This document shows, piece by piece, positions 44,976 through 47,446 of a DNA stretch of 64,000 nt. Position numbers and translations under genes: made by a program. The stretch comes from Pyrobaculum sp. 3827-6 (lineage in GTDB: Archaea; Thermoproteota; Thermoprotei; Thermoproteales; Thermoproteaceae): positions 1,337,500 to 1,401,499 of the forward strand of contig NZ_JAOTQN010000001.1 in the NCBI RefSeq assembly GCF_025641885.1. The letters are read 5' to 3'. The notes beneath the pieces are model-generated. The model made no database searches, was not told where the DNA came from, and worked only from the letters and a program-made list of their open reading frames with translations. Position 1 is the stretch's first letter. The number at the start of each line of letters is the position of its first letter.

Positions 44976-45443
44976 ATGGATCGCGAAATTCCGACTACGG
45001 AGGCCGTTCTGGAGTACCTGGAGTCGATGATGGAGCGGCTGGACCAGTGGGTTAAGGAACAGGAGAGGCAGGTGAAGGAGCTGGAGGCCCACGGGGAGTC
45101 TATGAAGATGGCCGACAGGCTTGAGTTGCTCTACTCGGCGCAGGCGATGTTGGGCTACATAGCCAAGGTTCTGAAGGATTTCGAGTCTTGGCTCAGCAAC
45201 CCAGTGGTGACGTCGGTGATGCCTGAGGAGATGCTGAGGCGCCTCGAGTCGATGCTTAGGGAGGTCGCCATTAAATTCATCCAAGTCGATATTTCTCACA
45301 CCAGCGAATATAGGGATCTGCTTTCTAAATTCGCGAAGGAGGGGAAGGTGCCGAGCGTCCTTACGCTGTATATACAGCAGAGGCCGCAGGCGCCGCCGCG
45401 TAGGCGTGGGGGAGAGGAGGGGGGTACGCCGCGGTTCTTCTAG
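44976..45443 (+). CDS. helical protein of unknown function (possibly DUF2153)
   Basis: 155 residues, almost entirely helical and charged: EAVLEYLESMMERLDQWVKE, QVKELEAHGESMKMADRLEL, MLGYIAKVLKDFESWL, MLRRLESMLREVAIKFI. The tail is Pro/Arg/Gly-rich (RRPQAPPRRRGGEEGG-like). It resembles a crenarchaeal family I remember as DUF2153, though weakly. A TTTATATACGG box lies about 26 bases upstream of ATG 44976, so it has its own promoter. Confidence 0.65.
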   Translation: MDREIPTTEAVLEYLESMMERLDQWVKEQERQVKELEAHGESMKMADRLELLYSAQAMLGYIAKVLKDFESWLSNPVVTSVMPEEMLRRLESMLREVAIKFIQVDISHTSEYRDLLSKFAKEGKVPSVLTLYIQQRPQAPPRRRGGEEGGTPRFF

Positions 45444-46261
45444 GGCTTGTAGATATCCAGCCTAACCTTGTACACGCCGGGGGCGTAGTCCCTCACCACC
45501 CGCCGACCTACCACTTGGCAGTGGGGACATATCTGCGTGACAATCCCCTCCGCCTCCCCAAATGGATCCTCTTCTTTGCCCAAGTGGTAGAAGTGAATCA
45601 CCCCGCTCTTCTCTAGACACTCAAGAGCCGCTGGCAGGTATTTATAGGCGCCTAGAGGGAGCGTTAGGAGGACTCTGTCGAATTTCCGCCTCAGTAGGGG
45701 TGCAACCACAGCCACGTCGCCGTGTATCGCCACGGCGTTTTTAATCTTGTTAAGCCGGAAGTTGTCGACCATGTACTTAAAGCCCCATGGGTTGAGCTCT
45801 ACGGCTACTATCAGCCTCGGCTTTGCCAACTTGGCTATGGCCACTGCGTAGGGCGCGACTCCGGCGAAGAGGTATAGAACTCTCTCGCCCTCGCCGACTC
45901 TACTAGCCACGTCAAGCCTGTCTGTCTGGTCCCTCGAAGAGAAGAAGACTTTGGTGGGATCGACTTTTATGTAGTAGCCGTGTTCCTTGTGTATAACCTC
46001 CGTGGGGCCCTCCAACAGCACCTCGTAGTTGTAGAGCCTGTACTCCCCGGCCCGGTTGCCTACTCTGCGCAACACGGCGCGTACGTGTTTATTCGCCTCA
46101 GCCACCGCCTTAGCTATGGCGAATTTGTAGTCCTCAAGCTCCGGCGGTATTTCGATAACCGCGACTGCGCCGCTCCTGGATCCAATAATTTCAAATGAGG
46201 ATGGGACCTTCTCAAGCAACTCCCCGGGCACCACTCCGCTGAGGCGGCGTCTAAGAGACAC
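45440..46261 (-). CDS. Trm5/Tyw2-like tRNA methyltransferase
   Basis: 273 residues. FEIIGSRSGAVAVIEIPPEL is the D1-type start, RLYNYEVLLEG and IKVDPTKVFFSSR are typical Trm5 strands, LYLFAGVAPYAVAIAK is the SAM loop, VAVELNPWGFKYMVDN the second acidic loop and LLTLPLGAYKYLP the catalytic-region loop (equivalent to N-x-P). Family members make m1G37 or wyosine intermediates in tRNA. ICPHCQVVG adds a Cys pair that could bind metal. Which product is formed is unclear. Confidence 0.87.
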   Translation of the reverse strand: MSLRRRLSGVVPGELLEKVPSSFEIIGSRSGAVAVIEIPPELEDYKFAIAKAVAEANKHVRAVLRRVGNRAGEYRLYNYEVLLEGPTEVIHKEHGYYIKVDPTKVFFSSRDQTDRLDVASRVGEGERVLYLFAGVAPYAVAIAKLAKPRLIVAVELNPWGFKYMVDNFRLNKIKNAVAIHGDVAVVAPLLRRKFDRVLLTLPLGAYKYLPAALECLEKSGVIHFYHLGKEEDPFGEAEGIVTQICPHCQVVGRRVVRDYAPGVYKVRLDIYKP

Positions 46262-46285
46262 GTCTTACAGAGAGGCGGCGTTTAA

Positions 46286-46340
46286 AAATCAGTCCCTGAC
46301 CCCATCTTCACGAGTCAGCCGGGTTAGTTATCCTCACAGC
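46286..46340 (-). ncRNA. C/D box sRNA (2'-O-methylation guide)
   Basis: Read on the minus strand: C box GTGAGGA (46337-46331), 12-base guide TAACTAACCCGG, D' box CTGA (46318-46315), 3-base spacer, C' box GTGAAGA (46311-46305), 12-base guide TGGGGTCAGGGA, D box CTGA (46292-46289). Two 12-base guides and a 3-base D'-C' spacer are the standard archaeal layout. C and C' each differ from RTGATGA by one base. By the N+5 rule the targets would lie in CCGGGTTAGTTA and TCCCTGACCCCA; I cannot search rRNA or tRNA here. An AAATATAG box about 25 bases upstream (46358-46365) could drive it. Confidence 0.8.
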
Positions 46341-46444
46341 CGTCTTTTCCTTGTTGCTATATTTGTTTTACCTCGGTGACCCAGATGCGCTGGTGTGTCG
46401 TGTCTACGACAAAAATTATTTATATCTAGCATGCAAGCCACTCC

Positions 46445-47446
46445 GTGTCTTCTAAAAAGAAAAAGGCTGACGCCGAGGCGGCCCAGGCGCAGGCCACCGT
46501 CGAAGTACGTGCCGATCTAGATGTCGAGGAGCTGGAGGGCATTGGGAGGGTGACGGGGGCTAAGCTGAAGGAGAGGGGGTACTACACGGTACGCGACATA
46601 GCCTTTGCATCTGCTAAGGAGCTCGCCGAAATTATCGGTAACGAGGAGAGGGCGCAACAGATTATTGAAGCGGCGCGGAAAATGCTGGGGCTCCACTCGT
46701 TTATCTCTGCCCTTGAGGTTTACGAGAGGCGTAAGATGATTAGGCGGATCTCCACGGGGGTGAGGGCGCTTGACGAGCTCCTCGGCGGCGGCGTGGAGAC
46801 CAGGGCCGTCACCGAGGTCGTGGGCGAGTTCGGCTCCGGCAAGACGCAGCTGTGTCACCAGCTAGCGGTGATGGTCCAGCTCCCCGAGGACAGGGGCGGG
46901 CTGGGCGCCAAGGCCATTTACATAGACACCGAGAACACCTTCCGCCCCGAGCGTATTATGCAGATCGCCAAGGCCAGGGGGCTCGACCCCGACCAGGCGT
47001 TGCATAACATCTTCTACGCCAGAGCCTACAGCTCGGATCACCAGATGATTCTTGTGGACCAGGCTAAGTCTATCATAAAGCAACACAACGTGGCGCTACT
47101 CGTGGTAGATTCGGTAATTGCCCACTTCCGCTCCGAGTTCCCCGGCAGGGAGAACCTGGCTGAGCGCCAGCAGAAGCTGAATAAACACGTCGCAGACCTA
47201 CTGCGCCTCGCCGACGCCTACGACGTGGCGGTGGTAATCACAAACCAGGTGATGGCGCAACCAGACGTCTTCTTCGGCAACCCGCTGAGGCCGGCTGGGG
47301 GCAACATATTGGCGCACGGCGCAACCTACCGCCTCTGGCTGAGGAAGTCAAAGGAAAACATTAGAATTGCGAAGATATTCGACAGCCCCTACCACCCGGA
47401 GGGGGAGGTTTCGTTCCGCATAACAGAGGAGGGGCTTGTGGACTAG
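46445..47446 (+). CDS. radA: DNA recombinase RadA
   Basis: 333 residues from GTG 46445, with TTATTTATATC about 26 bases upstream. N-terminal helix-hairpin-helix DNA-binding domain ([20 protein letters not shown]), polymerisation and ATPase core with Walker [10 protein letters not shown] and Walker B LLVVDSV, then L2-region [23 protein letters not shown] and C-terminal [17 protein letters not shown]. Forms filaments on single-stranded DNA for strand exchange. An Ala/Lys-rich N-terminal tail is normal. Confidence 0.97.

What the first reader, a model, noticed from the sequence alone, without database searches (positions are those of the whole stretch)
46286..46340. Unannotated-looking C/D box sRNA between a tRNA methyltransferase and radA
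Boxes C, D', C' and D with two 12-base guides and a 3-base spacer fit the archaeal C/D layout very closely, with a promoter-like box upstream. C and C' are slightly non-consensus, so a strict search could miss it. Guides predict methylation within CCGGGTTAGTTA and TCCCTGACCCCA.
Basis: partly seen in the sequence, partly recalled or inferred. Interest (0 to 1): 0.5.

Follow-up and report, generated by a model that had tools for sequence, protein, structure and literature searches.

The report
Archaeal C/D methylation guide RNA
This is a real but ordinary small guide RNA gene of a heat-loving archaeon, which most likely directs two methyl marks onto neighbouring spots at the heart of the large ribosomal RNA.

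Summary
On the minus strand, 46289-46337, lies a textbook archaeal C/D box sRNA gene: C GTGAGGA, 12-nt guide, D' CTGA, 3-nt spacer, C' GTGAAGA, 12-nt guide, D CTGA. It is the only such layout in the window and is not expected by chance. All 11 genus genomes searched hold an orthologue. Boxes and guides are about 80% identical, the flanks about 30%, near chance. The gene sits between the same TYW2/Trm5-like methyltransferase and radA genes in 9 of 11 genus genomes and in 5 of 5 fetched genomes of a sister genus. An A+T peak 25-30 nt upstream of box C supports its own promoter. The likely targets are imperfect: 23S rRNA, D guide at U1917 (helix 69) and D' guide at G1950 (helix 71), 33 nt apart, a standard double guide. 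In one species that pairing is not significant; across the family it is (3 of 20000 permutations). The D guide fits 16S position 1384 about equally well. No tRNA target was found. The family is probably already catalogued for Pyrobaculum, though I could not open that paper.

The parts
46289..46337 (-). C/D box sRNA core, box C to box D (49 nt)
   Evidence: orthologues in 11 of 11 genus genomes
46331..46337 (-). box C, GTGAGGA
   Evidence: family form RTGRNGA
46319..46330 (-). D' guide TAACTAACCCGG; predicted target 23S G1950 (E. coli numbering)
46315..46318 (-). box D', CTGA
46305..46311 (-). box C', GTGAAGA
46293..46304 (-). D guide TGGGGTCAGGGA; predicted target 23S U1917 (helix 69), alternative 16S position 1384
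46289..46292 (-). box D, CTGA
46358..46364 (-). TATA-like promoter box (AAATATA) 21-27 nt upstream of box C
   Evidence: A+T fraction 0.91 in the -30..-25 bin over 11 orthologues; consensus inference, no transcript data
46281..46288 (-). TTTTTAAA directly after box D: U-run end of the sRNA and possible TATA box of the downstream methyltransferase gene
   Evidence: A+T fraction 0.80 in the six bases after box D; inference

Best explanation
A single-copy, independently promoted archaeal C/D box sRNA gene. Its 50-60 nt RNA would form a k-turn (C/D) and a k-loop (C'/D'), bind L7Ae, Nop5 and fibrillarin, and act as a double guide on 23S rRNA. By the N-plus-five rule the D guide directs ribose 2'-O-methylation of U1917 in the helix 69 loop, and the D' guide that of G1950 in helix 71, 33 nt downstream (E. 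coli numbering). Shown here: box layout, orthology, synteny, conservation, and family-level complementarity. Inferred: transcription, protein binding and methylation.
For: Layout unique in the window and not expected by chance. Orthologues in 11 of 11 genus genomes at up to 3 mismatches in C'-guide-D, flanked by both trm and radA in 9 of 11 and in 5 of 5 fetched g3 genomes. Mean pairwise identity 0.85 for C'-to-D and 0.78 for box C plus the first part of the D' guide, against 0.30 and 0.30 in flanks. A+T peak at -30..-25. Best common pair of 23S sites 33 nt apart, reached by 3 of 20000 column-permuted families (10 members) and 2 of 20000 with four chosen members. D' guide family alone: 11 of 20000 reach its best site. 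In 5 of 9 g6 genomes with this D guide, the D' guide contains ACTTCAGCGG, complementary to another 23S stretch just upstream of U1917, N+5 at E. coli 1898: a different partner guide, same neighbourhood. Helices 68-71 are a known hotspot and double guides within 100 nt are a usual design (PMC4644070).
Against: For this species alone the double-guide match is not significant: 872 of 20000 shuffled guide pairs and 2736 of 20000 genomic decoys score as well. The D guide family alone is not significant (2321 of 20000), and its best single site is in 16S, not 23S. The D' guide here has an internal mismatch at A1952, shared by 4 of 11 members (G000, G002, G004, G006), while 6 pair there. G001 has lost the D' core. 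With each member's own guides (common G003 rRNA), the 1917/1950 pair ranked best in only 6 of 11. No transcript or methylation data were available.
Confidence: 0.85

Rival explanations
1. The D guide's main target is 16S rRNA near the base of helix 28 (U at E. coli 1384), not 23S U1917, or it serves both.
For: The family score of the D guide is 8.9 at 16S 1384 against 8.65 at 23S U1917, next best 6.65. The computed duplex is stronger: -22.3 against -18.1 kcal/mol for this species. Two sites this good were reached by 125 of 20000 permuted families. Guide position 3 is G throughout the 11 genus members (Watson-Crick with 16S C, wobble with 23S U). No separate exact 16S-1384 guide was found in 11 genus genomes. 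N. equitans sR17 is reported at 16S U1370/1371 on helix 28 (PMC4644070), which by that paper's own numbering offset is about the same nucleotide.
Against: The 16S duplex has a mismatch at position 7, two bases from the modified nucleotide, in every genus member. The D' guide points to 23S next to U1917 in this genus, and in g6 a different D' guide does too, which favours 23S.
Confidence: 0.3
2. A tRNA-targeting or orphan guide with no rRNA role.
For: About a third of the RNA-seq-defined archaeal C/D sRNAs lacked rRNA complementarity (163 of 489, PMC4644070), and single-species matching here is weak.
Against: No convincing match in 45 tRNA candidates of the genome, also when split by an intron. 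The exact guide complements occur only in the gene itself. Family-level 23S match.
Confidence: 0.1
3. A 5' leader element (k-turn bound by L7Ae) of the downstream methyltransferase gene on the same strand, not a free sRNA.
For: It lies on the same strand, with box D 27 nt before the GTG start of that gene, and most genus orthologues lie beside it (10 of 11).
Against: Both guides are conserved, which a k-turn leader would not need. TTTTTAAA about 20 nt before the GTG could serve the gene as its own TATA box. In g6 and g4 the D guide module occurs away from this gene (0 of 4 loci with trm or radA).
Confidence: 0.04
4. A chance look-alike of boxes.
For: C and C' are one letter off consensus.
Against: Conservation and synteny through the genus and no hit in 200 simulations.
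Confidence: 0.01

Closest known systems
Archaeal C/D box sRNAs of Pyrobaculum and Thermoproteus (double guides; Dennis et al. 2015, PMC4644070; Lui et al. 2018, known to me only through PMC7994747 and recall)
   Same: Box layout, 12-nt guides, N-plus-five targets within 100 nt in the helix 68-71 hotspot of 23S rRNA; intergenic gene with its own TATA-like box.
   Different: Nothing of kind. I could not match it to a published family name, since the paper with the Pyrobaculum families is not held and supplements could not be opened.
Rfam archaeal C/D families sR9 (RF01312) and sR14 (RF01145)
   Same: Same boxes and spacing; best sub-threshold matches of the locus (20.9 and 15.3 bits, E 0.028 and 0.036).
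   Different: Below the gathering scores (36 and 38 bits); guides are not shared, so it is not a member.

Membership tests
archaeal C/D box sRNA | box C / D' / C' / D with RUGAUGA-like and CUGA boxes in archaeal spacing (guides about 12 nt, short spacer) | tested here: met
   the fifth letter of C and C' departs from consensus here and in most orthologues
archaeal C/D box sRNA | evolutionary conservation of boxes and guides above flanks | tested here: met
   0.85 and 0.78 against 0.30 mean pairwise identity over 11 orthologues
archaeal C/D box sRNA | guide complementarity to a stable RNA with a pair at N+5 | tested here: met
   met at family level; not significant for this genome taken alone
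archaeal C/D box sRNA | stable transcript of about 50-60 nt | not testable with these tools
   no RNA-seq data; only an upstream A+T peak
archaeal C/D box sRNA | binding of L7Ae, Nop5 and fibrillarin and guided 2'-O-methylation | not testable with these tools
   needs biochemistry or methylation mapping
Rfam C/D families (sR9, sR14 and others) | score at or above the gathering threshold | tested here: not met
   no gathering-level hit in the window; best sub-threshold sR9, 20.9 of 36 bits
tRNA-targeting C/D sRNA | guide complementarity to a tRNA | tested here: not met
   45 tRNA candidates scanned

The most novel reading that the evidence does not exclude
The D guide is a compromise guide for both ribosomal subunits. 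Counted from box D, its first six bases pair perfectly with 16S helix 28 (U1384) and bases 4-10 pair perfectly with 23S helix 69 (U1917). One sRNA would then methylate a nucleotide on each subunit near the decoding-centre/helix 69 contact, while the D' guide anchors it on 23S. In relatives with a 23S intron inside the D' target (G008, G010) it could do so fully only after splicing.
Probability: 0.25. Interest if true: 0.5.

Novelty: new member of a known kind. Interest (0 to 1): 0.22.

Why it matters
It adds one well-supported guide, with named target nucleotides, to the 2'-O-methylation map of a hyperthermophile ribosome in the helix 69-71 region. It also shows that a family-wide test, not a single-genome complementarity, is needed to assign targets. 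If the two-subunit reading of the D guide is true, it would link 16S and 23S modification through one RNA.

Tried and rejected
Perfect complements as targets: rejected, the only copies are in the gene itself. tRNA targets, also across introns: no convincing match; the split matches in L090, L092 and L095 were judged not to be introns, since these are 85-nt tRNA matches and the halves would fall in the 3' arms; this was reasoned, not tested; the split D' matches in L087, L094 and L103 were not pursued. Secondary structure: the single strand does not fold better than shuffles (z -0.45), as expected for this class, so no covariance argument was tried. Rfam: no gathering-level hit. Separate guides specific for the 16S site: none in 11 genus genomes. 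12 exact matches to a 23S-specific guide pattern were found in 7 of 11 genus genomes, but reversed-pattern controls were about as frequent, so they were not followed. Named-genome scan: only 2 records returned, P. oguniense TE7 and a Thermoproteaceae MAG. Literature: searches gave no paper whose listing names this sRNA; these searches cover open-licence papers only, so they do not show that it is unpublished.

Full report
What is there. The window belongs to a genome of 2302599 bases in 13 contigs. One genus relative, G002, has the length and coordinates of the Pyrobaculum oguniense TE7 record, so the genus is Pyrobaculum. On the minus strand at 46289-46337 lies the sequence GTGAGGA-TAACTAACCCGG-CTGA-CTC-GTGAAGA-TGGGGTCAGGGA-CTGA: box C, D' guide, box D', spacer, box C', D guide, box D. 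It lies between a TRM5/TYW2-family methyltransferase gene downstream on the same strand (45440-46261) and a divergent radA (46445-47446).

Is it more than chance. A search with RTGANGA and CTGA boxes and flexible spacing finds only this place in the window, and nothing in 200 simulated windows of the same first-order composition. BLAST with the 91-base region finds it in 6 of 41 genomes, all of the genus. A pattern of C', D guide and D with up to 3 mismatches finds it in 11 of 11 genus genomes; 36 of 41 genomes in all have some match, not all of them this guide, and the reversed-pattern control also hits in several genomes. I read the sequences for the 11 genus loci and for those outgroup loci that match the D guide core. 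In the genus, boxes and guides average 0.85 and 0.78 pairwise identity, against 0.30 in the 40 bases upstream and 0.30 in the 25 bases downstream. Both trm and radA flank it in 9 of 11 genus genomes; G005 lacks trm and G006 lacks radA within the 3 kb read. In the sister genus g3, 5 of 6 genomes have it, and all 5, which I fetched, have it between trm and radA. A+T content peaks at 0.91 in the -30..-25 bin before box C over the 11 members, which fits an independent TATA box.

What it targets. The exact complements of the two guides occur in the genome only in the gene itself (for the full 12-mer of the D guide, for an 11-mer of the D' guide). In 23S rRNA the D guide pairs with CUCUGACCCU (8 Watson-Crick pairs and 2 wobbles without a break; N+5 is U1917), and the D' guide pairs with CCGGGUAAGUU with one internal mismatch at A1952 (N+5 is G1950). 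The sites lie 33 nt apart; numbers are from an alignment to E. coli K-12 23S rRNA. For this genome alone that is weak: 872 of 20000 shuffled guide pairs and 2736 of 20000 genomic decoys do as well, and only 6 of 11 members have this pair as their best when each is scored alone. Treated as a family it is strong: 3 of 20000 column-permuted families of 10 members, and 2 of 20000 with four chosen members, reach the observed best common site pair. G001 was left out of that test because its D' guide has lost the core. Six members have AACUUACC, which pairs fully with GGUAAGUU; four (G000, G002, G004, G006) have AACUAACC with the mismatch. The D' family alone is significant (11 of 20000), the D family alone is not (2321 of 20000).

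An independent pointer to 23S. Nine of ten g6 genomes in the search carry the same D guide core. In five of these nine the D' guide contains ACTTCAGCGG (G033 and G031 have variants; G023 and G034 differ), complementary to 23S CCGCUGAAG, 19 nt before the D target, N+5 at E. coli 1898. G028 of genus g4 has a one-letter variant of it. So a different partner guide keeps the D guide in the same 23S neighbourhood. In g3 the D' guide has no consistent rRNA site.

The 16S alternative. The D guide matches 16S UCCCUGCCCCUU (N+5 at E. coli 1384, helix 28) as well as it matches 23S: 8.9 against 8.65 in the family score, next best 6.65. The computed duplex is stronger, -22.3 against -18.1 kcal/mol, but has a mismatch at position 7. 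Two sites this good arise in 125 of 20000 permuted families. Both target sequences were the same in every genome where I could read them, so covariation cannot decide. I put 0.3 on the 16S site being real, alone or in addition. Helix names are recalled from the standard rRNA maps, not from a call, apart from helix 69 near A1912 in PMC4644070.

Introns. In this genome a 23S intron sits between 1913 and 1914, at the 5' edge of the D target. In G008 and G010 an intron falls inside the D' target, after about 1952; G008 also has the 1913/1914 intron. In those two species the full D' duplex can form only on spliced 23S rRNA. This follows from the sequence; no effect on splicing was tested.

Comparison with the known. 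Layout, target region (the helix 68-71 hotspot) and double-guide spacing match what is described for archaeal C/D sRNAs (PMC4644070: abstract, results and methods read; PMC7994747: abstract and two sections read, the first only in part). P. oguniense alone has 83 predicted C/D sRNAs (PMC3558965, passages). PMC7994747 cites a six-species Pyrobaculum study (Lui et al. 2018) that I could not open; that it lists 110 families is recalled. Since orthologues exist throughout the genus, this family is very probably in that catalogue. No Rfam family reaches its threshold, so a standard annotation pipeline could leave it out.

Verdict. A real, conserved and ordinary C/D box sRNA gene.

Noticed in passing
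L012 / L011 (G000:C5:100300-109800): The 23S and 16S rRNA genes of this genome carry introns: 23S at E. coli 1913/1914 plus a second one further 3', and the 16S match is broken into several pieces, with insert sequence directly before GCACACACCGCCCGTC.
   Followed up: partly
L055 (G010), L056 (G008): A 23S intron after about E. coli 1952 lies inside the D' guide target, so the full guide duplex would need spliced rRNA.
   Followed up: partly
L042, L035, L033, L038 (G000, G004, G006, G002): Four genus members share a U-to-A change in the D' guide that creates a mismatch with A1952, although 23S is unchanged at that site in all four.
   Followed up: no
window 45440-46261 (-): The downstream gene is a TRM5/TYW2-domain protein that scores below the cut-off of all six NCBIfam equivalogs it matches (best Trm5b, 205 of 600 bits), so its exact role is open.
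   Followed up: no
window 46281-46288: TTTTTAAA is the U-run after box D and may double as the TATA box of the methyltransferase gene.
   Followed up: no
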